Below the pieces are notes generated by a model, which did not search any database, was not told the DNA's origin, and worked only from the letters and a program-made list of their open reading frames with translations. 64,000 nucleotides of DNA from an uncultured bacterium (lineage in GTDB: Bacteria; Bacillota_I; Bacilli_A; RFN20; CAG-826): assembly GCA_949297445.1 (NCBI GenBank), contig CASFSS010000017.1, positions 1 to 64,000 on the forward strand, in the 5' to 3' direction. Positions 3,149 through 18,987 of the stretch are shown one piece after another. Positions within the stretch are counted from its first letter, which is position 1. Every line of letters begins with the position of its first letter. The position numbers and the translations under genes were made by a program.

Positions 3149-4414
3149 ATGCATAAAAATGAATATAGACGTCGACGACGAGAATTAATAAGTTTATTAA
3201 ACGATGACTCATTGGCGATTATTTTTTCTGGCGTCGAGAAAAAAAGTAGTGCCGATCAAACATATCCATTTGAAGTTAATCGTAATTTTTATTATCTGAC
3301 AGGCATCGCTCAAGAAAATAGCGTTTTAGTAATTGTTAAAACCGCCTTAGAATGCCATGAATATCTTTTTATTGACGAAAAAGATCCAACGATTGAAAAA
3401 TGGACCGGATACAAGCTATCCATCGAAGATGCACGCGAATTATCCGGCTTAGATAACGTTTTATTAACATCGTCCTTTGAAGGAAAGATTAACTCGCTTT
3501 TTGATGCGAGTGGTTCGCACTTTGGTTCAATTAAAACTCTTTATTTAGATTTGGACAAAGAAATAAAAATCCAAGAAGCGACCTCTACCCACGAATACCA
3601 AAAAAGCATGCTAGAGAGTCATCCTGAATTAAAAGACGCCGTCGTTGATATTTTCCCGCTCATTGCTAGAATGCGCATGAAAAAATCGAAAGAAGAAATT
3701 GCTTTGATTAAAGAAGCTATCAAAACGACTGAAATAGGTTTATTAAATGTTTTAAAAGAATTGTCTCCTGGCCGATATGAGTATAATTTGCGCAACGTCT
3801 TCGAATTTAATGTCAAAGAAGTTTCCGACGCAAAAATTGCTTTTCCGAGCATTGTTGCCGGTGGCAAAAATGGCGTTATTTTGCACTATCCTAGTGCCTC
3901 ATCGTCTTTAAAAGACGGTGAGCTTGTTTTGCTAGATGTCGGTGCTTCTTATGAATTTTATAATGGCGACATTTCTAGAACCTATCCTATCGGTGGTAAA
4001 TTTAGCCCTCTTCAAAAACAAATTTATGAAATCGTTTTAGGTTGTAACAAAGCAACTATTAAATTTATGCGTCCTGGTTTAACCTTAAAAGAAATCAATG
4101 ATTTTGCCACCAATTATTTGGCAGAAGAATGTTTTGCCCAAGGTTTAATCGAAAGTAAAGATGCTATTCGTGATGTTTACTATCATAGTGTCTCACATCA
4201 TTTGGGTTTGGATGTTCATGATGTAGGTGACCGCTCCTTGCCGCTTGAAGAAGGCAATGTTATCACCTGTGAGCCTGGCTTATATTTTAAAAAATATGGA
4301 ATTGGTGTTCGTATTGAAGATGACATTTTAATTACCGCAGACGGTTCTCTTAATTTATCGAGCGACATTATAAAGGAAGTCGCTGATATCGAAAGATTTT
4401 TGATTAGCAAATAA
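3149..4414 (+). CDS. pepP: Xaa-Pro aminopeptidase (M24B family)
   Basis: Cytosolic metallo-aminopeptidase removing N-terminal residues that precede proline. The 421-residue protein has an N-terminal AMP_N-type domain and a C-terminal pita-bread catalytic domain. The five metal ligands can be placed: the first Asp in LLDVGASYEF, the second in NGDISRTY, His in SVSHHLGLDVHD, Glu in CEPGLYF and Glu in VRIEDD. Start ATG has GAGGTG seven bases upstream and lies two bases after yigZ, so the two are probably cotranscribed. No terminator is evident before glpK. Confidence 0.93.
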   Translation: MHKNEYRRRRRELISLLNDDSLAIIFSGVEKKSSADQTYPFEVNRNFYYLTGIAQENSVLVIVKTALECHEYLFIDEKDPTIEKWTGYKLSIEDARELSGLDNVLLTSSFEGKINSLFDASGSHFGSIKTLYLDLDKEIKIQEATSTHEYQKSMLESHPELKDAVVDIFPLIARMRMKKSKEEIALIKEAIKTTEIGLLNVLKELSPGRYEYNLRNVFEFNVKEVSDAKIAFPSIVAGGKNGVILHYPSASSSLKDGELVLLDVGASYEFYNGDISRTYPIGGKFSPLQKQIYEIVLGCNKATIKFMRPGLTLKEINDFATNYLAEECFAQGLIESKDAIRDVYYHSVSHHLGLDVHDVGDRSLPLEEGNVITCEPGLYFKKYGIGVRIEDDILITADGSLNLSSDIIKEVADIERFLISK

Positions 4415-4453
4415 TATTTTTAGACATATCTTTTATAAACTTTCCTAAAAAGT

Positions 4454-4465
4454 TATAATTTAGTC
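4454..4465 (+). promoter_or_regulatory. Leaderless-type -10 box of glpK
   Basis: TATAAT at 4454-4459, six bases, then ATG at 4466. The predicted +1 coincides with the start codon. No SD is present and the -35 region is weak. Confidence 0.6.
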
Positions 4466-5941
4466 ATGCATAAATACATTTTATCGATTGACCAAGGTAC
4501 AACTTCCACTAGGGCTATTTTGTTTAATAAAAAAGGCGAAGCACGTTATCGAGCTTTCCGCGAATTAACTTGTCTTTTTCCTAAAGAAGGATATGTCGAA
4601 TTAGATCCTGTCCAAATTTGGATTAGTGTAGTTGATGTAATTAACGAAGTGCTAATTACCGCCAATAAAACGATGGCGGATATCGATTCTATTGGTATAA
4701 CCAATCAACGAGAAACGACGATAATATGGGATCGTTTGACTGGAAAGCCAATTTATAACGCCATTGTGTGGCAATCGCGTCAATCGCAAGAAATTTGTGA
4801 CCGTTTTATTGAAAAGAAAGAATTTATTCATGAACGGACGGGCTTATTAATTAATTCGTATTTTTCTGCATCCAAAATTCGTTTTATTTTAGAAAATGTT
4901 CCCGGGGCGATGGAGCGAGCAAAAAAAGGTGAATTATTATTTGGCACGGTGGATACATGGATTTTATATCGTTTAACATTGGGAAAAGTGCACGCGACCG
5001 ATATAACAAACGCTTCGCGAACCCTTTTATTTAATATTTTTACAAAAGACTGGGATGACGAACTTTTGGCGCTTTTCGACATTCCTAAAGTTATGCTACC
5101 AACCATTAAACCCTCTTCTTATGATTATGGACCGGCTTCATATTTTTCAGAAACCGTTCATATCCAAGCGATGGCCGGTGATCAGCATGCTGCTTTATTT
5201 GGTCAAAATTGTTTTAAACCCGGTGACTTTAAAAATACCTATGGCACCGGTTGCTTTATGTTAGTCAATACTGGCACTAAGCCAGTTTTATCGAAAAAAG
5301 GCTTATTGACGACAATCGCTTGGCAAATCGGTGACGAAGTAGTTTACGCACTAGAAGGCTCGGTTTTTGTCGGTGGTGCAGCTGTTCAGTGGTTACGCGA
5401 CGGCTTAAAAATTATTGATAGCGCCGCTGAAAGTGAAATAGAAGCATTAAAAGTTAAAGATAGTGATGGAGTTTATGTGGTACCATCTTTTGTTGGGCTA
5501 GGCACCCCTTATTGGGATAGCGATGTTCGTGGTGCTCTTTTTGGACTTACAAGAGCGAGTACCAAAAGCCACATATGCCGCGCGACTCTAGAGGCGATTG
5601 CTTTTCAAAGCAAAGATGTGATTGATGTGATGAAGGAAGAGGCAAACATTGCCATTGATACGATTCGCGTCGATGGTGGTGCGACGGCTAATAACGTCTT
5701 AATGCAGTTTCAAAGCGACATATGCCGCGCGACAATTCTTCGCCCCGCCTGTTTAGAAACGACTTCGTTAGGTGTCGCTTATCTAGCTGGTTTACACTCC
5801 GGTTTTTATAATGATTTAAACGAAATTGCCAAATTGCATACGATTGAGAAAATCTATAAACCAAAAATGGCTAAGGCCAAGGTGGATAAAAAATGTGTCG
5901 GTTGGCAAAAAGCCATCATGGCGACGAGGGCTTTTAAATGA
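4466..5941 (+). CDS. glpK: Glycerol kinase
   Basis: ATP-dependent phosphorylation of glycerol to sn-glycerol 3-phosphate, feeding glycolysis and lipid synthesis. The 491-residue FGGY kinase has N-terminal SIDQGTTSTRA (phosphate-binding), GITNQRET, IVWQSRQ, MAGDQHAALFGQ, YGTGCFMLVNTG and DGGATANN. In enterococcal and bacillary enzymes an exposed YHFYG-type loop just before MAGDQ holds the histidine phosphorylated by HPr. Here that stretch reads YDYGPASYF (219-227) and has no histidine. It overlaps the next gene by four bases (ATGA). No glpF or glpD is in the window. Confidence 0.96.
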   Translation: MHKYILSIDQGTTSTRAILFNKKGEARYRAFRELTCLFPKEGYVELDPVQIWISVVDVINEVLITANKTMADIDSIGITNQRETTIIWDRLTGKPIYNAIVWQSRQSQEICDRFIEKKEFIHERTGLLINSYFSASKIRFILENVPGAMERAKKGELLFGTVDTWILYRLTLGKVHATDITNASRTLLFNIFTKDWDDELLALFDIPKVMLPTIKPSSYDYGPASYFSETVHIQAMAGDQHAALFGQNCFKPGDFKNTYGTGCFMLVNTGTKPVLSKKGLLTTIAWQIGDEVVYALEGSVFVGGAAVQWLRDGLKIIDSAAESEIEALKVKDSDGVYVVPSFVGLGTPYWDSDVRGALFGLTRASTKSHICRATLEAIAFQSKDVIDVMKEEANIAIDTIRVDGGATANNVLMQFQSDICRATILRPACLETTSLGVAYLAGLHSGFYNDLNEIAKLHTIEKIYKPKMAKAKVDKKCVGWQKAIMATRAFK

Positions 5942-7074
5942 GTGAAGGTGTCAATCGAATTGTCGTTTTAAAAAAAGAGCAGTTTGATGTCGTTTATCAC
6001 CAATTAGGTGTCAATCCGCGCATCGATAAAGATTATATTTACGATTTATATTTAGATGCGACCAATAATGCCCAAGCGATGATGGACGCTAATGTTTTAG
6101 GCCGTTTTATTCCCCTTAACCCAATTGTGTTAATTCTCTATTTAGTTCATGAATGTGGTTATTTGCTCGATGCGACTAATAAAACTTGTGAGGAGTTAAA
6201 AAAGAACGATATATTTCATCAAAAAATCGTTTCGGCTTCTTTAGATAAATATTTCACCAACGAGCATTTATCACTGCGAAACGAGTCGGCAATTTCAAAA
6301 TATATGCCGCAAATTTCGACGCCAACAATTTATTTAAATTTTATCATTGGTGCGCTTAATCGCTATGCCAAAAAATCCCCCAAAGAGACACTCATTATCG
6401 ACATTATGAAAAAAGGCTTTTTAATGATGAAAGCGATTGACGATTTAATGGTGAATGGCTTTGCGACAGAAGCTTTTTCCACCTGGCGGACCTTACACGA
6501 AACCGAATGCATTTTAAAATTGCTAGATAGTGGTGGCCAAGCGACCATCGATGCTTATTTAAAGCATATGAACTACGCAATGGCGTTTCGAGGCGCTATT
6601 CCATCGAAAGAAAAAACCGATGAAGTTTTCATCCAAATTAAAAGCGAAATGGCCGATCATGGCTTAAAGAGTAAAGATATGAAAAAGTTTATCGAATATG
6701 GTTGGCTATATTCCCTTTCGCCCGTAGAAGAAATAAAATTAAATTTCCGCGACGGTGTCGAAAAGGCCGCCAAATTATCTAATTACTCGCGCATTTACGA
6801 GATGGCTAGCGAAATCGCTCATAGTTCACCAATTTTGATTTATTCGCGACCAAATTATTTTTTCCATTTGACTTTAATTAACATGTACGAATCCTTTTTT
6901 AGAATGGAAGAAATGTTTAAAAAATTCTTTATGAATAGCGCTAGCGAAAAAGAACAAAAACATTATTTATTGATGCGCAAAGTGTATCTAAGCGAAATGC
7001 TCGCTATTCACGAGCACGAAAGAAAGTTGTTTTCCGCGCTTGGAAAGACTAATCCGGATAATAGTTCAAAATAA
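5938..7074 (+). CDS. Uncharacterised protein, DUF5677-like
   Basis: The 378-residue soluble protein is mostly helical. Two stretches resemble the DUF5677 family: a central segment around residues 170-200 with FATEAFSTWRTLHETECILKLL, and a later YEMASEIAHSS. The family is of unknown function and occurs widely in accessory gene neighbourhoods. No signal peptide or clear membrane segment. It starts inside the glpK stop (ATGA), so it is translated from the glpK mRNA, yet nothing ties it to glycerol use. A bidirectional terminator follows. Assignment to the family is by eye. Confidence 0.7.
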   Translation: MSEGVNRIVVLKKEQFDVVYHQLGVNPRIDKDYIYDLYLDATNNAQAMMDANVLGRFIPLNPIVLILYLVHECGYLLDATNKTCEELKKNDIFHQKIVSASLDKYFTNEHLSLRNESAISKYMPQISTPTIYLNFIIGALNRYAKKSPKETLIIDIMKKGFLMMKAIDDLMVNGFATEAFSTWRTLHETECILKLLDSGGQATIDAYLKHMNYAMAFRGAIPSKEKTDEVFIQIKSEMADHGLKSKDMKKFIEYGWLYSLSPVEEIKLNFRDGVEKAAKLSNYSRIYEMASEIAHSSPILIYSRPNYFFHLTLINMYESFFRMEEMFKKFFMNSASEKEQKHYLLMRKVYLSEMLAIHEHERKLFSALGKTNPDNSSK

Positions 7075-7087
7075 GGTTTATAAGCAA

Positions 7088-7126
7088 CAAAAAAAGCGGT
7101 AAAAACCGCTTTTTATTTTATTTTTT
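7088..7126. terminator. Bidirectional terminator between convergent genes
   Basis: AGCGGT/ACCGCT (7095-7110, loop AAAA) flanked by A-runs on the left and T-runs on the right. It serves the glpK unit on the plus strand and the TGS-kinase on the minus strand. Confidence 0.85.
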
Positions 7127-7128
7127 AA

Positions 7129-8772
7129 TCACACATCAGCGTAGCATGAGCCACCGATGAACTCTCTTAATAAGGAGTTGCATGGCACCCATTCATCAGG
7201 CATATCTAAGAAATACTTTAGCATACGAATTAAACGCTCGGCGACTGGGAAATATTCGCTATCTTTTTCAATTTTGCTCAATAAAGGTAATGCGTATTTT
7301 TTCATGACACATAACTCGTAAGAAAGCATTGAGTTATATACGTAATCAGCACCTTCTTGCGTATCGTATATCCATGTAAATTCTCCCCGCCGTACGCTTG
7401 GCCACATGCCAATTGTTTCTTCGGCTGAGGCATTGCGGAATTTATAGTCGCGCACAATGCGTCGCAATAGACGCAAATCGGTCAAGGAAATTGGATTATG
7501 ATTGTCCAAATTAATCTGCGCGCTTGGAGCAATATAAATTTTAAATTTTTGATGCTTTGGAATTAAGGTAGTTAATCGATCATTTAAAGCGTGGATGCCT
7601 TCAATAATAATTGGTTCATTTTCACCAACTCGTAACACGCGACCAGGTACTCTTTTTCCTAATTTGAAATCGAATTTTGGTAATTGGACTTCATCTCCCG
7701 AGATGAGATCGAGCATATTTTGGTTAAATAAGTCAATGTCCAACGCTTCAATGGATTCTAAATCTGGTTTTCCATCTTCATCGACGGGCACTTGAGATTT
7801 TGGTAAATAATAATCGTCAATTGAAATGCGAACAGGTTTAATGCCACGACTTAGTAGTTCAATGCGCAGGCGATTGGCGAAAGTCGTTTTACCACTTGAA
7901 GATGGGCCAGCAACACAAATAAGACGAATGTTAGATATATCGTCTTCAATGCGCGCGCCTAAATCAGAAAGCATACGATTATGACGAGCTTCACAAACAT
8001 TTAAAAATTCTATTTCGCCATCTTCTGTAATTCTTTGGTTGATGCCGGCGACGGTGTCAGCGCCGGTGATAATCGCCCATTTATGGGCTTCTTTCAATGT
8101 ACGACCAAATGTGGGTGCATCAGCAAATGGTGGGATAGTGCCTCCTGTTTCAGCACGTGGATATTGAAGTAAAATGCCAGGAGCATAAAGTCGGAGTTTA
8201 AATTCTTTCAAATAGCCACTAGACGGAACCATATGAGAGAACATGTAGTTTAAATAACCATTGCAATCATATAAATGGACGGTTTTTTCTGGTCGATAAG
8301 GCAAAATGTCCAATTTATCATATAATTTGCGTTCAGTATAAATTTCTTTTGCCTCTTCTTTTGTGACAATAAAACGATTGAATGTTAAATCTTCACTAAC
8401 GATTTTTCTCGCTTCATCATCCACAGCTTTCACAACTTTAGAATCAATTTTGAAATTTTTGTCTAAAATTTGAATAAAAACTGAACGAGAAACATTGTAA
8501 CAAAAGCGAATATTAACATCAGGATATAGGCGATGGAAAACCATCGCGATTAAATAACGTAAAGATGCTTCATAAATTTTTGTCGCATCGTTATCTTTTA
8601 CGGTTAAAAATTCAACGTTAGCATCGTAATATACCTCGTATGTCAATTCGCGAACGCGATTATTCACACGAGCACACACATATGCCTTGGGGTCGCCTTC
8701 AATTAAATCTAAAAGACGAACTTTCTTTTCAAATTCCCTTGTTTTGCCAAGGTAGTTTAAAGTAAATGTCAT
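7129..8772 (-). CDS. TGS-domain nucleoside (uridine-type) kinase
   Basis: The 547-residue fusion starts with a TGS-like and threonyl-tRNA-synthetase second-domain-like region (about 1-250). A phosphoribulokinase/uridine-kinase domain follows, with P-loop GPSSSGKTTF and downstream SIDDYYLPK, FDFKLGKR and IIIEGIHALN. This architecture is known in Bacillota and is usually annotated as a nucleoside kinase; the nucleoside is not evident from sequence. The ATG is supported by AAAGGAGA about ten bases upstream. A cre-like site lies in its upstream region, shared with the divergent hydrolase gene. Confidence 0.85.
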   Translation of the reverse strand: MTFTLNYLGKTREFEKKVRLLDLIEGDPKAYVCARVNNRVRELTYEVYYDANVEFLTVKDNDATKIYEASLRYLIAMVFHRLYPDVNIRFCYNVSRSVFIQILDKNFKIDSKVVKAVDDEARKIVSEDLTFNRFIVTKEEAKEIYTERKLYDKLDILPYRPEKTVHLYDCNGYLNYMFSHMVPSSGYLKEFKLRLYAPGILLQYPRAETGGTIPPFADAPTFGRTLKEAHKWAIITGADTVAGINQRITEDGEIEFLNVCEARHNRMLSDLGARIEDDISNIRLICVAGPSSSGKTTFANRLRIELLSRGIKPVRISIDDYYLPKSQVPVDEDGKPDLESIEALDIDLFNQNMLDLISGDEVQLPKFDFKLGKRVPGRVLRVGENEPIIIEGIHALNDRLTTLIPKHQKFKIYIAPSAQINLDNHNPISLTDLRLLRRIVRDYKFRNASAEETIGMWPSVRRGEFTWIYDTQEGADYVYNSMLSYELCVMKKYALPLLSKIEKDSEYFPVAERLIRMLKYFLDMPDEWVPCNSLLREFIGGSCYADV

Positions 8773-8823
8773 AAATTTTCTTCTCCTTTGTGCCTTAAAA
8801 ATAATAATTTAAGCAGGCTATAA

Positions 8824-8838
8824 TTGCAAGCGCTTACA
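8824..8838 (+). promoter_or_regulatory. Candidate catabolite-responsive element (cre)
   Basis: TTGCAAGCGCTTACA satisfies every constrained position of the Bacillota cre consensus WTGNAANCGNWNNCW and is one base from a perfect palindrome. It lies between two divergent genes, the TGS-kinase and the nicotinamidase-like hydrolase. A CcpA-like regulator is encoded at 53192. Binding is inferred. Confidence 0.5.
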
Positions 8839-8901
8839 CATACAAAACAAGTTTTGTCTGACATTTTTTAAATATAGGTGGCTAATTAGTAATTATTTTA
8901 G

Positions 8902-8914
8902 TATAATTATTGCG
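8902..8914 (+). promoter_or_regulatory. -10 box upstream of the hydrolase-pfp unit
   Basis: TATAAT at 8902-8907, predicted +1 at 8914, giving a leader of about seven bases and no SD. A -35 box is not clear. Confidence 0.45.
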
Positions 8915-8920
8915 CTTATT

Positions 8921-9439
8921 ATGAAAAACCTTTTGATTGTTGTTGATTATCAAAATGACTTTGTCGATGGCGCGCTAGGCTTTCCCGGCGCTGAGAACTT
9001 AGAAAATTATATAGTCGATAAAATTATTGAATTCAAAGAATCTGGGCAAGATATTGTTTTTACAAAGGATATGCATGAATTTGATTATCTTGAAACTGAA
9101 GAAGGCAAGAATCTTCCCGTCGAGCATTGTATGCGATTTACAAAGGGGGCCGACTTATATGGTCGGGTCAAAGAATTAGCAAAAGGTTATACCATTATCG
9201 AAAAAGAAACGTTCGGAGCAAGAGGTCTTTTTCCATATTTATCGCGTCATCGATATGACAATATATATCTAGTTGGTTTAGTTTCTTATATTTGTGTTGT
9301 GTCGAATGCGATTGTGGCAAAGGCAGGTAATCCATTAGCTCATATCGTCATTTTAAAAGATGGAACCGGTGGCCCCGATAAAGAGGCGGAGAAAATTGCT
9401 TTTGAAGCGATGAAAGCTTTGCAAATTGAAGTTCGTTAG
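8921..9439 (+). CDS. Isochorismatase-family cysteine hydrolase, probably nicotinamidase
   Basis: The 172-residue alpha/beta hydrolase has the triad D9 (VVDYQND), K95 (IIEKETFGA) and C125 (VSYICVVSNA), and metal-type D50-x-H52. Nicotinamidase, converting nicotinamide to nicotinate, is the best fit for size and motif spacing, and a nicotinate phosphoribosyltransferase lies at 52004. The wider family includes other amidases, so the substrate is inferred. It has no SD and follows a TATAAT box closely. pfp follows after 11 bases with a good SD, so they form an operon. Confidence 0.8.
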   Translation: MKNLLIVVDYQNDFVDGALGFPGAENLENYIVDKIIEFKESGQDIVFTKDMHEFDYLETEEGKNLPVEHCMRFTKGADLYGRVKELAKGYTIIEKETFGARGLFPYLSRHRYDNIYLVGLVSYICVVSNAIVAKAGNPLAHIVILKDGTGGPDKEAEKIAFEAMKALQIEVR

Positions 9440-9450
9440 GAGGATATTTT

Positions 9451-10653
9451 ATGAAAAAAGGTTTTGTTTATATTCAAAGTGGTGGTCCTACTGCCGTCAT
9501 CAATTCGTCATTGTATGGCGCAATTATGGAAGCAAAGAAGCACACGGATAAAATTGAAGGCATCTACGGTTCGTTGAACGGAATTGAAGGTTTGCTCAAT
9601 GACCGTTTGATTGATTTAGAAAAAGAGGACGCGGAGACAATTGAATTATTTAAGCAAACTCCCGGTGCTATTTTAGGTACTACTCGTTATAAATTGCCGC
9701 AAAACCTTCACGATGAACAATATAATCGAATCATTACAACGTTAAATAAACATAATATTGGTTATGTTTTTGTTAATGGTGGTAACGATTCTATGGATAC
9801 ATGTCATAAACTTCATCGCCTTTGCGAAGAGTTAAAACTTGATATCAAAGTGATTGGTATTCCGAAAACGGTCGATAACGATCTAGCTATCACCGACCAT
9901 TCATTAGGCTATGGCTCGGCCGCTAAGTATGTCATCAATACAGTAAAAGAAATTTGCATCGACGCAAGTTGCTATAAAAAAGGAAAAGTTTTTGTCATTG
10001 AAATTATGGGACGCAATGCTGGTTGGTTAACTGCGTCTGTTGATTTGTTACCAAGTTACGCTCGCCCCGATTTAATTTTCTTGCCAGAAAATGTTTTTGA
10101 TTTAGAAAAATTCTTACAAGACATTAAAACTATTTATGAAAAACAAGGTCACGCCATTGCCGCAATTAGCGAGGGAATTATTTTTGAAAGAGATACTTCT
10201 TCCGCTCGCGTTGACGCCTTTAATCACATTCAACTTGGTGGTGCGGCGGATGCTTTAACTAAAATCATTGAAAAGCGATTAGATTTGCCGACACGTTCCA
10301 TTGAGCTTTCTTTAGCGCAACGTGCCTATTGCATTCTATTAAGTAAAGTCGATCAAGATGAAGCTATTGCTTGCGGTGCTTTCGGAGTGAAGGCAGCTGT
10401 TTCTGGTGAAAGCGGTAAGATGGTTGTCATTACGAGAATTAACGATGAACCTTATGCTACAAAATTGGAATTAGCCGATATTTCTCAAATTGCCAACGAA
10501 GAAAAGATGATTCCTTCTTCAATGATGTCGGGACAAACTAAAATGGATGTTTCTTTTGAACGTTATTTGCGTCCACTTATTCAAGGTGAAGTTAATGTTA
10601 AATATGAAGACGGCATCATTGCTTCCGCCCGCCTAAAAAAAGTTTTAATTTAA
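9451..10653 (+). CDS. pfp: Pyrophosphate-dependent 6-phosphofructokinase
   Basis: Phosphorylates fructose 6-phosphate with PPi, reversibly, in glycolysis. The 400-residue protein belongs to the PFKA superfamily, with N-terminal SGGPTAVINS. The two donor-specificity positions are of PPi type: GGNDS has Asp (D113) where ATP enzymes have Gly, and PKTVDND has Lys (K139) where ATP enzymes have Gly. MGRNAGW, for sugar phosphate binding, follows. ATG has AGGAGG eight bases upstream. Use of PPi is typical of small-genome fermenters; a soluble pyrophosphatase (18430) also competes for PPi. Confidence 0.93.
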   Translation: MKKGFVYIQSGGPTAVINSSLYGAIMEAKKHTDKIEGIYGSLNGIEGLLNDRLIDLEKEDAETIELFKQTPGAILGTTRYKLPQNLHDEQYNRIITTLNKHNIGYVFVNGGNDSMDTCHKLHRLCEELKLDIKVIGIPKTVDNDLAITDHSLGYGSAAKYVINTVKEICIDASCYKKGKVFVIEIMGRNAGWLTASVDLLPSYARPDLIFLPENVFDLEKFLQDIKTIYEKQGHAIAAISEGIIFERDTSSARVDAFNHIQLGGAADALTKIIEKRLDLPTRSIELSLAQRAYCILLSKVDQDEAIACGAFGVKAAVSGESGKMVVITRINDEPYATKLELADISQIANEEKMIPSSMMSGQTKMDVSFERYLRPLIQGEVNVKYEDGIIASARLKKVLI

Positions 10654-10686: not shown

Positions 10687-10711
10687 AAGGGTTGAAATAA
10701 CACCCTTTTTG
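10687..10711 (+). terminator. Terminator hairpin after pfp, overlapping the atp promoter
   Basis: AAGGGT pairs with ACCCTT and is followed by a short T-run. The loop contains the TTGAAA used as -35 box of the atp operon. The U-tract is short, so termination may be partial. Confidence 0.55.
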
Positions 10712-10720
10712 AATGATAAT
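10692..10720 (+). promoter_or_regulatory. Promoter of the ATP synthase operon
   Basis: TTGAAA at 10692-10697, exactly 17 bp, GATAAT at 10715-10720. Predicted +1 is about 10727, three bases before the ATG of atpI. Confidence 0.75.
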
Positions 10721-10729
10721 ATTTTCACG

Positions 10730-11176
10730 ATGAAAAATTGGCTTTCGAAATTGTCGCAATTATCAAAGATGGTTCTATTAGCTAGTCTAGTTGGCGTTGT
10801 TTTAACTTTGTTATCAACCATTTTTATTATATTTGATATGTGGGATTGGACGGTTGGCGTTTTAATCGGTAGCGCAATTGAAGTGATTTGTATTGTCACT
10901 TTGTATGCCGGCGTGGATTATTTTACTAAAGAGCAAAATTATACTTATTTTGCTTTATTTTATTTAATCCGCATCATTTTATTCGCCGGAGGAATCGTTC
11001 TGGCGGCTTGCTTAACTTATGTCGCTCATATAAAAGCCATCAATGTTTTTGGTGTCTTAATTGGCTATACACCAATGCAGTTCGTTGTCATAATGGTGGC
11101 GATTAAAGAAAAGCATTTACCAACAAGTCAGCCAAAAAAGCAGTTAGATGAGGTCGATAAAAATGGCAATCAATGA
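10730..11176 (+). CDS. atpI: ATP synthase protein I-like membrane protein
   Basis: The 148-residue protein has four membrane segments and is first in the atp operon, the position of AtpI, which helps assemble the c-ring or supports ion supply in other bacteria. Sequence similarity in this family is weak, so the call rests largely on topology and place. An upstream in-frame TTG at 10709 overlaps the -10 box and cannot be transcribed from that promoter. The ATG at 10730, just past the predicted +1, is therefore chosen. Its end overlaps atpB by 14 bases. Confidence 0.75.
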   Translation: MKNWLSKLSQLSKMVLLASLVGVVLTLLSTIFIIFDMWDWTVGVLIGSAIEVICIVTLYAGVDYFTKEQNYTYFALFYLIRIILFAGGIVLAACLTYVAHIKAINVFGVLIGYTPMQFVVIMVAIKEKHLPTSQPKKQLDEVDKNGNQ

Positions 11177-11930
11177 GTTGGCAGATATTTATTCAATCGA
11201 CGACTTTAAAACGTGGGACATCGCCGGTGAAACAATTGTTGCTCTTTTCATTATTGCCTTTTTAATTATCTTATCATTTGTTATTTTTATTTTAGCCAAA
11301 CGTGCCGATCCGCTTAAGCGCCCAAAAGGTTTGTTGCTTGTCGCTGAAATGGCGGTTGAAAAAATCGATGCTTTTGTTGCTGAAACGATGGGCCCGGGCT
11401 TTGAAAATTTTGGGGGCATTTTATTGGGGATTGTTCCATTTTTGTTTTTGTCATTTACAATCGGCATCACCGGCTTGCCGACTTCAATGTCTTCGTTAAA
11501 TGTTTCATTTACGCTTGCGCTAGTCACTTTCTTGATGATTCATTTAACATCTATGCGCTTTACGAAATTTCGTTATTTTAAGCGATTTATTGAGCCGCTA
11601 CCTTTCTTCTTGCCGATTAATTTAATTTCGATGTGGGCACCTTTGCTTTCTTTATGTTTACGTATGTTTGGTAATGCCGTTGTTGGTTGGGTCATGCTTT
11701 CATTGCTCAATTATGTTTTAGAGTTAGCGAGCGCGGCAGTCTTTTCCTTTTTGCCAACTGGCATCAATTCAATCTTCTTTGTGCCGATTGCTACGCCCTT
11801 ACTTCATGCCTATTTTGATTTATTCTCGGGCTTAATTCAAACGCTCGTGTTTACTTTTTTAACGGCCTGCTTTATTGCGCAGGAAAAACCCGAAGAAGAA
11901 AAAGTGCAAGAAAAACTTGCCTTATCTTAA
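11163..11930 (+). CDS. atpB: ATP synthase F0 subunit a
   Basis: Membrane stator subunit forming the ion half-channels beside the c-ring. The 255-residue protein has several membrane helices. The essential arginine lies in LSLCLRMFGNAVVG, followed by the conserved C-terminal helix around HAYFDLFSGLIQTLVFTFL. I choose ATG 11163 because GAGG lies about nine bases upstream; an in-frame ATG at 11148 would overlap that SD. It overlaps the end of atpI. Confidence 0.93.
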   Translation: MAINELADIYSIDDFKTWDIAGETIVALFIIAFLIILSFVIFILAKRADPLKRPKGLLLVAEMAVEKIDAFVAETMGPGFENFGGILLGIVPFLFLSFTIGITGLPTSMSSLNVSFTLALVTFLMIHLTSMRFTKFRYFKRFIEPLPFFLPINLISMWAPLLSLCLRMFGNAVVGWVMLSLLNYVLELASAAVFSFLPTGINSIFFVPIATPLLHAYFDLFSGLIQTLVFTFLTACFIAQEKPEEEKVQEKLALS

Positions 11931-11951: not shown

Positions 11952-12185
11952 ATGACAGATGTTGGTTTGATTGCTATTGCAGCGGCTATCGCAATTGCTT
12001 CCTCAGGCTGTTCTTCCATTGGTGAAGGATGGATTTGTCGAAATGCTATCGAAGGAATTGCTCGCAATCCAGAAGCCTATGGAAAAATTCGTACCGGCAT
12101 GATTATTGGCTGCGCGCTCGTCGAGACATGCGGTATTTATGCATTGCTTATTTCCATCTTGTTAATCTTTGTTTACGGAGCTTAG
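11952..12185 (+). CDS. atpE: ATP synthase F0 subunit c
   Basis: Proteolipid that forms the ion-driven rotor ring. The 77-residue hairpin has the ion-binding Glu E58 in TM2, within ETCGIY. This aligns with the Na+-type ESTGIY of Ilyobacter and Propionigenium c subunits, including the Tyr. In TM1 the position of their Na+-ligand Gln is Glu (E25, in IGEGW), 33 residues before E58 as in Ilyobacter (32/65). The polar loop ARNPEA is canonical. ATG at 11952 has AAAGGAGA eight bases upstream; an in-frame TTG at 11934 precedes the SD and is rejected. Confidence 0.95.
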   Translation: MTDVGLIAIAAAIAIASSGCSSIGEGWICRNAIEGIARNPEAYGKIRTGMIIGCALVETCGIYALLISILLIFVYGA

Positions 12186-12191
12186 TCGTCT

Positions 12192-12749
12192 ATGTCATCT
12201 CTTTATAGTTTTACTTCATCTTCCCCTATCACCAACGAAGGATTCCTCGAAAAACTTTTCCCTAATCCTTGGGATTTTGTTGCGACTTTTTTAGCTTTTA
12301 TCGTTTTACTAGTCATCGTTTTCTTCTTTGCGTATAAACCGGTAAAGAAATTGCTAAAAAAACGCGGTGATTATGTCGAAGAAAATATTAGTGAAGCTAA
12401 AAAGAAAAATGACGAGGCCGATTCCAACATTGTTTTGGCAAAAAAAGAGTTAAAAAATGCTCGTCAAGAAGCTGTTACAATTGTAAATAACGCTCAAGAT
12501 GATGCGACAAATATTATTAACAAAGCCAAAATAGATGCAGAAAAAGCGGCTACATTAGAATACGAAAAGAAAAAAGAATTGCTTGCTCAAGATGTCGAGA
12601 AGATGAAAGACGATATTCATCAAGAGATGGTCGATATTGCTTTATTGGTTAGCCAAGAAGTAATTGGCCGTGAGATAGACGAAAAAGATCAAGCACGTTT
12701 GGTCGACGAGATGGTCACTCGCCTAGAAAAAGGAAACGATGATGAATAA
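12192..12749 (+). CDS. atpF: ATP synthase F0 subunit b
   Basis: Peripheral stalk subunit. The 185-residue protein has one N-terminal membrane helix (about residues 27-48, WDFVATFLAFIVLLVIVFFF) and then a long charged, alanine-rich coiled coil reaching the F1 head. Length is somewhat above the usual 160-170 because of a serine-rich N-terminal extension before the helix. The gene begins six bases after atpE and overlaps atpH by 11 bases. Confidence 0.93.
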   Translation: MSSLYSFTSSSPITNEGFLEKLFPNPWDFVATFLAFIVLLVIVFFFAYKPVKKLLKKRGDYVEENISEAKKKNDEADSNIVLAKKELKNARQEAVTIVNNAQDDATNIINKAKIDAEKAATLEYEKKKELLAQDVEKMKDDIHQEMVDIALLVSQEVIGREIDEKDQARLVDEMVTRLEKGNDDE

Positions 12750-13290
12750 CGAAAGCAATGTTAAATATGCTTCTGCTTTGCTTAGTCTTGCTCAAGATGA
12801 GGATTTGCTCGTTCAATATAAAGCAACGTTTAAATCTTTCATTGCTTTGGTAAAAGAAAATCCGAAAATCATCAAAATGCTTGGTAGCTATTTTCTCGAT
12901 GAAAAGCATAAATATGCTTTTGTTGACGAAATAACAGAAGAATTTAACCTCAAAAACTTCTCTTCGTTTATCAAACTATTAGTCCGCAAACATTTAATTG
13001 ATAATTTGTTTGATATTTATAGGGAATTCATCAAGCTAGCTAACGAGAATCTCGGCGTAAAAGAAGGCATTGTTTATAGTGCTGTAGCGTTGAATGAAAA
13101 GCAGTTGCACGAATTAACTAGTGCCTTATCAAAGCGTCTCGAGGAAGAAATTGAACTGAAAAATATTGTTGATACTTCGCTAATTGGCGGAGTTAAGTTA
13201 GTTGTCGACGGTAAAATTTATGACGGTTCAATAAAAAATCACTTAAATGAACTAAAAAGAACCTTATTAGAAAGGAAAGCAACATTATGA
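12739..13290 (+). CDS. atpH: ATP synthase F1 subunit delta
   Basis: Links the b-subunit stalk to the top of the alpha3beta3 head. The 183-residue protein has the family layout: a helical N-terminal domain starting [15 protein letters not shown] and a C-terminal domain with [11 protein letters not shown]-like sequence ([15 protein letters not shown]). Two adjacent ATG codons (12739, 12742) are possible starts. It overlaps both atpF and atpA, indicating coupled translation. Confidence 0.92.
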
Positions 13291-14798
13291 AAAATGTTTC
13301 GAAAGAAATCTCAGCCTTAATTAAAAAACAAATTTTAGATTTCGATAAAAAAGTTGAATCTAACGATGTTGGCGTTGTCGTTTCGATTGGTGATGGAGTG
13401 GCAACTATTTATGGTTTAGATGATGTTATGCTCGGCGAATTAGTTCAATTCCCCCACGATATATATGGAATGGTTTTAAACCTCGAAGAAGAAAGCGTTG
13501 GGGTCGTTCTTTTAGGTGATGATACTTTCATTAAAGAAGGAGATACCGTCAAACGGCTAAAAGAAGTCGTGGAAGTCCCTGTTGGTGATGCTTTAATTGG
13601 CCGAGTTGTAAACGCTTTAGGCGCTCCTCTTGATGGTAAAGGACAAATTAAGAGCGAACGTCATCGTCCGATTGAACGAATCGCCCCGCTTGTCATGACG
13701 CGAGAATCAGTAAACACTCCATTATTAACTGGCATTAAAGCCATTGACGCGATGATTCCAATTGGTCGCGGACAAAGAGAATTAATAATTGGCGACCGCC
13801 AAACCGGCAAAACCGCCATTGCGATTGATACAATCTTGGCTCAAAAGGATCAAAATGTAAAATGTATCTATGTGGCCATTGGCCAAAAGAATTCTAGCAT
13901 CGCTTCCATTATTCATCGGCTTGATACAAGTGGCGCTTTAGCATATACAACGGTCGTTTCTTCAAGCGCTAGCGAATTGGCGCCAATGCAATATATTGCC
14001 CCTTATTCAGGAATGGCTATCGCTGAAGAATTTTTAGAAAAAGGTGAAGATGTTTTAATCGTCTTTGACGATTTGAGCAAACATGCCGTCGCTTATCGAA
14101 CGCTTTCCTTACTTTTAAAGCGCCCATCTGGTCGCGAAGCATATCCTGGTGATGTATTTTATTTGCATTCCCGCCTTTTAGAAAGAGCCTGCAAGTTAAA
14201 TAAGGAAAATGGCGGTGGCTCCATTACCGCTTTGCCGATAATTGAAACACAACAAGGTGATATTTCCGCCTATATTCCGACCAATGTTATATCGATTACG
14301 GATGGGCAAATATTCTTATTGACCGATATGTTTAATGCTGGCTTCCGTCCGGCAATTGATAGTGGCTTGTCTGTTTCGCGTGTCGGTAGCAGCGCCCAAT
14401 ATAAAGTTATGAAACAAGTTAGTGGCTCCTTAAGAACAGAACTAGCCTCTTTTAAAGAGTTAGAATCTTTCTCGCAATTCGGCAGTGATCTTGACGAGAA
14501 CACCAAGAATATTTTGGCGCACGGTCGAGTGCTGATGGAAGTTCTTAAACAAGACCAATATGATATCTATTCCTTAGACCGCCAAACAATAGAATTGTTT
14601 GTTGCCAAAAATAACTATCTAGATAAATATCCACTTTCGCGGATTAAGCCAATACTAAAAGACCTATATAAATATATTGTTTCAACAGATAATCAATTAA
14701 TTAAAGATATCGTCTCGACGCATGTTCTATCGAATGAAAACGAGAATAAACTGCGTTCTTTAGTCGAAGATTATTTAGCTACTTTGGAGGTCGATTGA
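13287..14798 (+). CDS. atpA: ATP synthase F1 subunit alpha
   Basis: Non-catalytic nucleotide-binding subunit of the F1 head. The 503-residue protein contains the N-terminal beta-barrel, the P-loop [15 protein letters not shown], and the conserved VSRVGSSAQ segment. Length is typical. Overlaps atpH by ATGA, and its TGA stop overlaps the atpG ATG. Confidence 0.97.
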
Positions 14799-15643
14799 TG
14801 GCTAGCCTCATCAAAATGAAAAGAAGAATTAATTCCATTGCTTCCACAAAAAAAATTACCAAAGCAATGGAATTAATCGCGACTACCAAACTGAAAAAGT
14901 ACAAAGATTTAATGTTTGCTAATCGTCTTTACGAAACGGAAATTAGTCAAATGATGCGCTTTTTAAACGCCGCACCAAAAACAGAAAATTTAGAAAAATT
15001 CTATCAAGAAGGTCCTAGCGATAAAGATTTATACGTCGTTATTAACTCTAATTTAGGTTTATGTGGCTCTTATAATTATGACTTATATAAGTTCGTGTTA
15101 AATAATGTTCAAAAAGATGATGCCATTTTGTTGCCTTTAGGCAGCAAAGGAGAAAAGTATTATGGCGATGAAGGCTATAATGTCGAACTAGATTATAACG
15201 ATCTTAATCAAGCGATTGATTACGCCCGCATAAATAAATTCGCTCGTTTCTTAACCGACAACTTTTTAAGTGGAAAATACCGAAATGTATATGTAATTTA
15301 TACCAAATTTGTCAATTCGCTCACATTCGTTCCGACTTTGGTAAAGGTGCTTCCGATTGTAAATGAAGATGCTGCCATAGCACCTTTTAGCTACGCGCCG
15401 CTTTTAGATAGTCCAATCGAGAGCATATTTCTTGAAGCTTTACCTTTGTATGTCAATTCATTTTTCTTATCAAAAATTGTCGAATCGTTAGTCTCAGAGC
15501 AGGCTTTGCGTCGTAACTCGATGGAAAACGCCAACGATAATGCCGAAGAGTTAATTGAAAATTTAACTCGTGAATATAATAAAGAGCGCCAAAATTCTAT
15601 CACTGGAGAAATCAGTGATGTCATAAGCGCCAGTTTGCGCTAG
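14798..15643 (+). CDS. atpG: ATP synthase F1 subunit gamma
   Basis: Central rotor shaft. The 281-residue protein begins [34 protein letters not shown] and ends with the conserved RQNSITGEISDVISAS segment that lies inside the head. The ATG at 14798 overlaps the TGA of atpA; an in-frame TTG just upstream is not needed. SD is GGAGG inside the atpA tail. Confidence 0.95.
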   Translation: MASLIKMKRRINSIASTKKITKAMELIATTKLKKYKDLMFANRLYETEISQMMRFLNAAPKTENLEKFYQEGPSDKDLYVVINSNLGLCGSYNYDLYKFVLNNVQKDDAILLPLGSKGEKYYGDEGYNVELDYNDLNQAIDYARINKFARFLTDNFLSGKYRNVYVIYTKFVNSLTFVPTLVKVLPIVNEDAAIAPFSYAPLLDSPIESIFLEALPLYVNSFFLSKIVESLVSEQALRRNSMENANDNAEELIENLTREYNKERQNSITGEISDVISASLR

Positions 15644-17460
<1,817 letters not shown>

Positions 17461-17495: not shown

Positions 17496-18323
17496 TTATA
17501 GATATTCTATCATTTTTGTTAAGGCGCTAGAATCTTTCAACAAATCGCCTTTATAATCAATCGTTCCTGCTTTAGTGAATATTAAACCATATAGTGTGTC
17601 AATATTTTCTTCGCACCCTAATAATGTGTTGATTGTCGTCCTATCTTCCTCAGATAAAAATGCGTAGTCTACCACGTAGACATCATTGTTTGCTTCGTAT
17701 AGTAACGAACGAAGATTTTCAGTGTAAAAAGCGGCTTGTTCATTACTTGATCTATCGTAGATAAAAACTGGTGTACATTCATTTCGCTTTATGCATGATA
17801 TTAAATTAGCATAACTAGTAAATAGATACAAATTTGTGTCATAAAAATTACGTTGCATATATTTAGTGAACATAAATTCGGTTTCAAAATAGTTGTTCGA
17901 TAACGATTCGCATCCGCTTTGCCCGTCTACTAAGTATAGATGCGGCGTTGCGACAACGGTAAGAAAATAGTCGGGATAATTTAAACAAAGATTATAATAA
18001 TCACCGGCTTGGGCATATACATCAATATAGTAGATGGCCTGTTTTGAATTTTTTAAATAGGGCAATAACGCTGTTTCATTGAACGTTTCACACGAAGAGC
18101 ATTTACTACTACTTACATAAAATAAAAAAATCTCATTCGATTCTATTAAGTTGGTGATTGTCTGATAGGTGGATGAAAATAAATAATCGGTTATTGAATT
18201 TTCTTCTAGGAGTATTAAGCTATCGCCGTTATGCACTAGCGGATAATCACCATGATAGTCGTTGCAGGCACTGATGATCAATGCAAGCGAACTTAATAAT
18301 AGAAGTGCTTTTTTAGTTTTCAT
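17496..18323 (-). CDS. Thioredoxin-like lipoprotein
   Basis: The 275-residue protein has a lipoprotein signal peptide with lipobox LIISAC, so Cys20 would be lipidated and the protein surface-anchored. The middle contains a thioredoxin-type segment: the strand LFYVSSSKCSSCETF with a CSSC motif, then ATPHLYLVDG, where the proline could be the cis-proline. A thiol-disulfide or binding role outside the membrane is inferred. It faces the atp operon convergently. A TATAAT box ends seven bases before the ATG, so the mRNA would be nearly leaderless. Confidence 0.75.
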   Translation of the reverse strand: MKTKKALLLLSSLALIISACNDYHGDYPLVHNGDSLILLEENSITDYLFSSTYQTITNLIESNEIFLFYVSSSKCSSCETFNETALLPYLKNSKQAIYYIDVYAQAGDYYNLCLNYPDYFLTVVATPHLYLVDGQSGCESLSNNYFETEFMFTKYMQRNFYDTNLYLFTSYANLISCIKRNECTPVFIYDRSSNEQAAFYTENLRSLLYEANNDVYVVDYAFLSEEDRTTINTLLGCEENIDTLYGLIFTKAGTIDYKGDLLKDSSALTKMIEYL

Positions 18324-18429: not shown

Positions 18430-18987
18430 ATGAATATTTGGCATCGCACCGATCCAGCGCGAATTCGTCCTGAATCTTTTCTAGCGTGTATCGAAATTCC
18501 AAAAGGGTCAAAAAATAAATATGAATTAGATAAATATAGTGGTGCGTTGATGTTGGACCGTGTTTTATATACATCAACTCACTATCCGCAAAATTATGGT
18601 TTTATTCCTCGAACGTTAGCGGGTGATGGCGACGCCTTAGACGTTTTAGTTCTTTGCTCGGAGGCAATTGTTCCTTTAGCGTTGGTGGAATGCTATCCGA
18701 TTGGTGTTTTAGAAATGATTGATAGTGGCCGTAGCGACATGAAAGTCATCGCAATTTGCAAGAATGATCCTTTGTTTAACTCCTTCACTGATATTAAGGA
18801 TATTCCCAATCACATTTTGCAAGAAATAAAACACTTCTTTAAAGTTTATAAGGAATTAGAAGGAAAAGTAACTGTCGTCAATAAAATGCGCGGTCGTGTC
18901 GTGGCGATGGAAGTCATTCGTGACGCGATTGATTTATATAACAAGACTTATCCCGATTCGGACATGACTTATTTTAAGAAAGTCTAA
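18430..18987 (+). CDS. ppa: Inorganic pyrophosphatase (family I)
   Basis: Hydrolyses PPi to phosphate, pulling biosynthetic reactions forward. The 185-residue protein has the family I signature DGDALDVLVL with its metal-binding aspartates, and the conserved YPQNYGFIPRTLAGDGD and KVIAICKNDP segments. ATG is preceded by AGGAGG about 11 bases upstream. The convergent surE gene overlaps its stop by four bases. Coexistence with a PPi-dependent phosphofructokinase suggests that PPi levels are balanced between the two. Confidence 0.95.
   Translation: MNIWHRTDPARIRPESFLACIEIPKGSKNKYELDKYSGALMLDRVLYTSTHYPQNYGFIPRTLAGDGDALDVLVLCSEAIVPLALVECYPIGVLEMIDSGRSDMKVIAICKNDPLFNSFTDIKDIPNHILQEIKHFFKVYKELEGKVTVVNKMRGRVVAMEVIRDAIDLYNKTYPDSDMTYFKKV

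What the first reader, a model, noticed from the sequence alone, without database searches (positions are those of the whole stretch)
11952..12185. Na+-type c subunit with an extra TM1 glutamate
TM2 reads ETCGIY, matching the ESTGIY Na+ site, and TM1 has E25 where the Na+ ligand is Gln, 33 residues before E58. The ring would carry two carboxylates per ion site. The coupling ion and the protonation of E25 are open.
Basis: partly seen in the sequence, partly recalled or inferred. Interest (0 to 1): 0.5.

Follow-up and report, generated by a model that had tools for sequence, protein, structure and literature searches.

The report
Two-glutamate ATP synthase rotor subunit
This is the rotor subunit of an ordinary bacterial ATP synthase from a small-genome bacterium; its ion site has two glutamates, an arrangement already known from Fusobacterium, but one residue that usually marks a sodium site is replaced by cysteine, so whether it runs on sodium or protons still needs a test.

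Summary
Confirmed: window 11952-12185 (+) encodes a 77-aa F-type c subunit inside a complete atp operon, with E25 exactly 33 residues before E58. It aligns without gaps to the Fusobacterium nucleatum c ring (3zk1), E25 on E32 and E58 on E65. That ring is the 'two-carboxylate' type published in 2013 (PMC3692424), in which the extra Glu stays protonated and Na+ is carried. So the extra Glu is not new. In the 159 family genomes read, none has Gln there: E in 155, D in 4.

A two-carboxylate ring with Met there (Burkholderia N-type) proved H+-selective although Na+ had been predicted. Na+ coupling is probable here (about 0.6), helped by a T. maritima-like rnf cluster in the genome, but not established.

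Extra result: within this family Cys60 goes with Ser at TM1 position 22 in 44 of 45 genomes, against 3 of 113 with Thr60; the sites switch together (LR 42; 0 of 134 simulations as high). Outside the order this does not hold (0 of 20), so it is a lineage-specific coupling.

The parts
11952..12185 (+). atpE, F-type ATP synthase subunit c, 77 aa; E25 (TM1) and E58 (TM2) make the two-carboxylate ion site, with T59, C60, Y63 and the backbone of L56
12015..12017 (+). codon of S22 (F. nucleatum Gly29 position), coupled with C60 within this family
12024..12026 (+). codon of E25, the extra TM1 carboxylate (F. nucleatum Glu32 position)
12123..12125 (+). codon of E58, the principal ion-carrying carboxylate (F. 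nucleatum Glu65 position)
12129..12131 (+). codon of C60, in place of water-holding Thr67
11148..11930 (+). atpB, subunit a, 260 aa; LRMFGN carries the arginine aligned with LRLFGN of Bacillus PS3 subunit a
   Evidence: (PF00119, 107.3 bits)
10709..11176 (+). possible atpI (PF03899 at 20.5 bits, below the cut-off of 25.1)
12192..12749 (+). atpF, subunit b
12739..13290 (+). atpH, subunit delta (OSCP)
13287..14798 (+). atpA, subunit alpha
14795..15643 (+). atpG, subunit gamma
15659..17065 (+). atpD, subunit beta
17062..17460 (+). atpC, subunit epsilon

Best explanation
The gene encodes the rotor (c) subunit of the only rotary ATPase found in this genome, of the two-carboxylate class known from Fusobacterium nucleatum. 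E58 is the carboxylate that binds and releases the coupling ion as it passes subunit a. E25 most likely stays protonated and does the job of the Gln of other Na+ rings: its oxygen touches the ion and its proton bonds to E58. T59 gives the hydroxyl ligand, L56 a backbone carbonyl, Y63 locks E58. The coupling ion is most likely Na+, exchanged with a Na+ gradient made by Rnf or, run backwards, made by the ATPase itself. Shown here: sequence, operon, register, conservation, presence of rnf genes. Inferred: protonation of E25, ion choice, role of Rnf.
For: Gapless alignment with the F. nucleatum c ring, whose site is solved with Na+ bound and Glu32 protonated. E25 kept in 155 of 159 family genomes read (D in 4, Gln in none), E58 and Y63 in 159 of 159, T or S at 59 in 159 of 159, although Glu to Gln needs one base change. 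Thr at the Ser66 place has precedents: Thr64 in the E. hirae Na+ ring and the ETSGIF hairpin of the A. woodii c1 subunit. Own genome holds rnfCDGEA, a short RnfB and an apbE-like gene, with the gene order and short RnfB of Thermotoga maritima, where Rnf and ATP synthase were both shown to use Na+ (PMC7414866). Only one PF00137 match in the genome, so no sign of a separate V-type ring.
Against: C60 replaces the residue that holds the ion's water; PMC2359735 lists Ser, Thr, Gln or Arg there for Na+ types. The Burkholderia N-type ring (Glu30, Glu61, Thr62, Met63, Tyr66) is H+-selective in spite of a Na+ prediction. Two of the five glycines of the TM1 motif shared by known c11 Na+ rings remain (S18, C20, S22, G24, G26). 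Rnf is found in only 25 of 50 sampled family genomes with an F-type c subunit, while the second carboxylate is in all 50, so Rnf cannot be its reason. Two of the Rnf subunits (B, G) and the ApbE-like protein score below their NCBIfam cut-offs. Which ion this Rnf pumps is not known. Nearest folds in the PDB include H+ rings as much as Na+ rings.
Confidence: 0.6

Rival explanations
1. A two-carboxylate ring that is H+-coupled. With Cys instead of Thr67 the site holds no ion-coordinating water, both Glu are protonated and only the proton on E58 is moved.
For: B. pseudomallei N-type ring with Met at this place is H+-selective. PMC3692424 expects H+-driven two-carboxylate rings in S. pneumoniae and M. 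tuberculosis. 25 of 50 sampled family genomes have no Rnf match.
Against: T or S at 59 and Y63, polar groups typical of Na+ sites, are kept in 159 of 159 genomes. Cys is small and weakly polar, unlike Met. Most family members read (113 of 159) still have Thr60.
Confidence: 0.2
2. A ring of mixed use, Na+ or H+ according to pH and Na+, as reported for Methanosarcina acetivorans.
For: PMC3692424 attributes the M. acetivorans behaviour to a more H+-selective two-carboxylate site; a weakened water anchor could shift selectivity that way (inference).
Against: No direct evidence here; M. acetivorans is an archaeal enzyme.
Confidence: 0.15
3. E25 is itself released and rebound, so that the ring carries two charges per site, or E25 works as a pH sensor.
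For: A pH-sensor role was proposed from engineered E. coli two-carboxylate mutants (quoted in PMC3692424).
Against: In F. nucleatum protons are not co-transported and the computed pKa keeps Glu32 protonated.
Confidence: 0.04
4. No real feature: a frameshifted, chance or decayed frame.
For: None found.
Against: Complete atp operon, relatives 97-99% identical in the genus, strong conservation.
Confidence: 0.01

Closest known systems
Fusobacterium nucleatum F-type c ring (3zk1, 3zk2), the two-carboxylate Na+ ring
   Same: Both carboxylates 33 residues apart in gapless register, Tyr70, hydroxyl residue at 66, GEG around the TM1 Glu
   Different: Thr59 for Ser66, Cys60 for Thr67, TM1 glycine motif reduced from five Gly to two; ring size unknown
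Thermotoga maritima Na+ F1FO ATP synthase with Rnf
   Same: rnfCDGEAB order with a short RnfB (119 aa, four Cys here; 10.56 kDa, one predicted cluster there); c subunit with the complete Na+ ligand set there
   Different: ATP synthase and Rnf of T. maritima were assayed; here they are genes only. The T. maritima c sequence was not at hand; here Cys60 breaks the ligand set
Burkholderia pseudomallei N-type c17 ring
   Same: Two carboxylates, Thr after the principal Glu, Tyr four residues after that Thr
   Different: Met at the 67 place; H+-selective; N-type operon additional to an F-type one
Ilyobacter tartaricus Na+ c11 ring (1yce, 2wgm)
   Same: General site layout
   Different: Gln32 in place of Glu
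Acetobacterium woodii Na+ ring (4bem)
   Same: Thr at the 66 place in one hairpin of c1
   Different: Gln in TM1; a ring of mixed V-type and F-type subunits (recalled)

Membership tests
F-type ATP synthase subunit c (PF00137) | Match above the curated cut-off | tested here: met
   56.2 bits against 24; TIGR01260 53.7 against 43.95
F-type ATP synthase subunit c (PF00137) | Helical hairpin | tested here: met
   AlphaFold2 helices 4-38 and 40-76, mean pLDDT 91.4; 3zk1 Z 9.2, rmsd 2.6, 76 aligned (some unrelated helical hairpins score as high)
F-type ATP synthase subunit c (PF00137) | Place in an atp operon | tested here: met
   a, c, b, delta, alpha, gamma, beta, epsilon in order
Two-carboxylate c subunits | Carboxylate at the 32 place of TM1 and at the 65 place of TM2 | tested here: met
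   E25 and E58 in gapless register with E32 and E65 of 3zk1
Two-carboxylate c subunits | TM1 carboxylate protonated at all times | not testable with these tools
   Known for F. nucleatum, inferred here
Na+-specific c rings (ligand set of PMC2359735) | Gln or Glu at 32, Glu at 65, Ser or Thr at 66, Tyr at 70 | tested here: met
   E25, E58, T59, Y63
Na+-specific c rings (ligand set of PMC2359735) | Ser, Thr, Gln or Arg at 67 | tested here: not met
   C60; hence not filed as an established Na+ ring, only as working like one with probability 0.6
Na+-specific c rings | Na+ protects from DCCD or NCD-4; Na+-dependent ATPase | not testable with these tools
   Needs the protein
c11 Na+ rings with the GxGxGxGxG motif | Five glycines in TM1 | tested here: not met
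   S18 C20 S22 G24 G26; in the family all five are Gly in 2 of 159 genomes
c11 Na+ rings with the GxGxGxGxG motif | Eleven subunits | not testable with these tools
   Needs cryo-EM, AFM or mass spectrometry

The most novel reading that the evidence does not exclude
In this family the hydroxyl that holds the water of the Na+ site has been moved from TM2 (Thr at the 67 place) to TM1 (Ser at the Gly29 place) while Cys took the TM2 place, in a two-carboxylate ring that may be larger than c11 because its TM1 glycine motif is eroded. That would be a second way to build a two-carboxylate site, and a natural series for testing how one water anchor sets Na+ against H+ choice.
Probability: 0.17. Interest if true: 0.45.

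Novelty: new variant of a known kind. Interest (0 to 1): 0.3.

Why it matters
The second carboxylate adds a small-genome lineage, known here mostly from metagenome bins (record titles), to a class described in 2013; in the genomes read of that lineage it is fixed, not occasional. The useful part is the natural variation at one place: the same two-carboxylate site occurs with Thr or Cys at the water-holding position, switching within one genus together with a TM1 residue. This gives related natural rings with which the question of what decides Na+ against H+ in two-carboxylate sites could be tested directly. It also warns that ETCGIY should not be scored as a full Na+ motif.

Tried and rejected
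Rejected: that the extra Glu is new. Rejected: that Rnf explains it (25 of 50 genomes with the second carboxylate have no Rnf match; several of these genomes are incomplete). Rejected as a general rule: the Ser22-Cys60 pairing. I first took it for a hydroxyl swap, but 20 Cys60-type c subunits from outside the order have Gly22 (19) or Ala22 (1) and never Ser.

Led nowhere: searches for reports on this lineage's ATP synthase (on the guessed name RF39: one paper with one mention of each term, not opened; none), for coevolution in c rings (12 listed of 169 papers, none on this pair by title; the one with coevolution in its title is about the flagellar C-ring), for Cys in Na+ c subunits (12 listed of 14, none on it by title) and for mycoplasma c subunits (one paper, not opened). 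That the Ser22-Cys60 pair is unreported rests alone. Fold comparison does not tell Na+ from H+ rings.

Rows dropped: two V-type rows of L142 from the 53 rows, leaving 51; six loci without a long enough a or b sequence from the tree (L046, L221, L242, L247, L263, L140; L221 is a Ser22-Thr60 row); second loci of the same genome. The tree holds 159 of the 203 family genomes with a match; the other places were not listed, not fetched or dropped. The six rows meant as outgroup did not group together in the tree, so the root is unsure. Simulated data sets with fewer than three tips of either trait were skipped, and each was fitted from two starts only. The DNA pattern needs Gly or Ala at position 26 and so misses Ser26 types such as G071. 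The taxonomic order was not named by any tool; record titles of relatives say Erysipelotrichaceae, Bacillales or Bacilli.

Full report
Observation. The frame at 11952-12185 (+) is an intact 77-aa F-type c subunit between subunit a (11148-11930) and subunit b (12192-12749) in a complete a-c-b-delta-alpha-gamma-beta-epsilon operon. The genome (1.12 Mb, completeness 100) has no other PF00137 match at E <= 0.001.

What the extra Glu is. phmmer against the PDB aligns residues 4-74 with 11-81 of the F. nucleatum ring 3zk1 without a gap (E = 8e-12): E25 falls on Glu32 and E58 on Glu65. That ring is the published 'two-carboxylate' Na+ rotor (PMC3692424; I read its outline, passages, introduction, discussion and the first part of the supporting legends). 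There Glu32 is protonated in the crystals and in the calculations, coordinates Na+ and bonds to Glu65 with its proton; only Na+ is transported. The legend of its figure S1 lists further species, T. maritima among them; the figure itself is not held. PMC2359735 (passages) already gave Gln/Glu32 as a Na+ ligand in 2008. So the arrangement is known, and the expected state of E25 is constitutively protonated, equivalent to Gln.

Is it conserved? In an even sample of 57 family genomes I read 51 F-type c rows from 50 genomes: E25 in 50, D in 1; R38, P40, E58, I62 and Y63 are invariant; median pairwise identity is 54%. In a larger set of one c subunit for each of 159 family genomes: E 155, D 4 (all genus g7), E58 159, Y63 159, position 59 T 126 and S 33. 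In the 30 order loci, of 35 rows the 25 F-type ones all have E; the other 10 rows are the two halves of five double-hairpin, V-type-like subunits. The second carboxylate is thus fixed in what I read of this lineage, not a curiosity of one genome.

Coupling ion. For Na+: E25, E58, T59, Y63 and a backbone carbonyl at 56 fill known ligand places, and Thr at the 66 place has precedents (E. hirae Thr64; ETSGIF in A. woodii c1). The genome carries, on another contig (L143, G000:C7:14000-27000), rnfC 4050-5345, rnfD 5348-6472, rnfG 6477-6998, rnfE 6999-7718, rnfA 7718-8305, a short rnfB 8513-8872 and an apbE-like gene 8869-9831, in L143 coordinates. NCBIfam scores of C, D, E and A pass the curated cut-offs; B is just below (65.6 of 68.7), G (31.0 of 102) and ApbE (34.2 of 498) are below. 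T. maritima has the same gene order and an RnfB of 10.56 kDa with one predicted cluster, and its Rnf and F1FO were both shown to move Na+ (PMC7414866, passages); the RnfB here has 119 aa and four Cys. No match was found for OAD beta, membrane pyrophosphatase, Proton_antipo_M (Mrp, complex I) or NhaC; one CPA-type antiporter is present (PF00999 89.7 bits; NCBIfam CPA2 model below its cut-off).

Against a confident Na+ call: residue 67, which with Ala64 O holds the water that completes the Na+ shell in F. nucleatum, is Cys60. PMC2359735 reports Ser, Thr, Gln or Arg there in all predicted Na+ types. The N-type ring of B. pseudomallei, with Glu30, Glu61, Thr62, Met63 and Tyr66, was predicted to be Na+-selective and proved predominantly H+-selective (PMC5376962, two sections and passages). 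And the second carboxylate does not track Rnf: 25 of 50 sampled family genomes with an F-type c subunit have an Rnf match, 25 do not; in the order 153 of 279 (82 of 150 at high completeness) have one. I put Na+ at about 0.6, H+ at 0.2, mixed use at 0.15.

The Ser22-Cys60 pair. Position 22 (Gly29 of F. nucleatum) lies three residues before E25 in TM1, position 60 two residues after E58 in TM2, so both are on the same side of the carboxylates at about the same level (22+60 = 82; 25+58 = 83; inference from the hairpin). Among 159 family genomes: Ser22-Cys60 44, Ala22-Thr60 88, Gly22-Thr60 22, Ser22-Thr60 3, Gly22-Cys60 1, Ser22-Ala60 1, Ala22-Cys60 0. I noticed the pair in the first 51 rows; in the 112 genomes that were not in that sample it holds again: Ser22 in 35 of 35 with Cys60 and in 3 of 77 with Thr60. 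The Cys60 genomes belong to genera g12 (23), g3 (13), g27 (4), g1 (3), g2 (1) and g31 (1). On a tree made from subunits a and b (165 tips) a dependent model of change beats an independent one by LR 42.0 (chi-square p 1.7e-8); 0 of 134 simulations under independence reached it, the highest being 13.8. In a parsimony count over 1540 column pairs, 22-60 ranks fourth for changes on the same branch (5 shared branches, 0.28 expected, hypergeometric p 1e-6); the first pair, 29-54, also lies at one level of the hairpin. Relatives within g3 and g31 switch both sites while sharing 74-83% of the chain (L171/L230 12 of 69 residues differ, L170/L250 18, L200/L240 18), so the double switch looks like change in place rather than replacement by a distant gene; but these pairs differ elsewhere too, mostly in TM1. 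Caveats: the root of the tree is unsure and internal states are inferred.

The test outside the order was negative. A DNA pattern for (Q/E)25-(G/A)26-(S/T)59-Cys60-Ile62-Tyr63 hit 25 of 392 genomes drawn from the phylum, all of which turned out to be of the window's own class. Five are from the window's family (Ser22 in 4, Gly22 in G046). The other 20 have Gly22 (19) or Ala22 (1), none Ser; 16 have Gln25, 4 Glu25. So Cys60 does not need Ser22 in general. The pair is a lineage-specific dependence whose cause, water anchoring or packing, is open.

Ring size. The five glycines of the TM1 motif of known c11 Na+ rings are S18, C20, S22, G24 and G26 here, and all five are Gly in only 2 of 159 genomes. 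PMC3692424 reports that mutations of this motif in the c11 ring of I. tartaricus increase the number of subunits, and PMC2914638 that Ala or Ser in it goes with wider rings (passages). A ring larger than c11 is therefore possible; this was not tested.

Verdict. Known class, confirmed observation, an overlooked Cys that reopens the ion question, and one modest new pattern. Not filed as an established Na+ ring because the residue-67 criterion was tested and not met; it probably works like one.

Noticed in passing
L143:4050-9831 (same genome, contig C7): rnfCDGEA with a very short RnfB (119 aa, four Cys) and an apbE-like gene, resembling the minimal Rnf of Thermotoga maritima.
   Followed up: partly
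L003, L013, L016, L018, L029, L142: Genomes of genus g28 (L016, L029, L142) and family f8 (L003, L013, L018) of the same order carry a double-hairpin, V-type-like c/K subunit (GTQ in the first, ETYAIL in the second half). The window's c found nothing in G198, G202 and G203.
   Followed up: no
L050, L202, L204, L205: Genus g7 (4 of 4 genomes read) has Asp at the E25 place: a natural Glu-to-Asp change of the second carboxylate.
   Followed up: no
L061 and L139 (genome G154): Genome G154 (genus g19) carries two different single-hairpin c subunits (ETT and ETV types); several other g19 genomes also show two PF00137 matches.
   Followed up: no
L273-L292: Outside the order, ETCAIY c subunits: 15 from one family (f20) with Thr at position 21 and Gln or Glu at 25, and 5 from small genomes (f11) with Gln25 and Ala21.
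   Followed up: partly
window 17496-18323 (-): 275-aa ORF facing the end of the atp operon, with a lipoprotein-like start and a CSSC stretch (thioredoxin-like by eye); no Pfam match.
   Followed up: no
window 9451-10653 (+) and 18430-18987 (+): A phosphofructokinase-family gene and a soluble inorganic pyrophosphatase lie on either side of the atp operon; whether the former uses PPi was not tested.
   Followed up: no
c subunit positions 29 and 54 (window C29, C54): The strongest co-changing column pair in the family tree (10 shared branches, 0.83 expected); both are Cys in the window protein.
   Followed up: no
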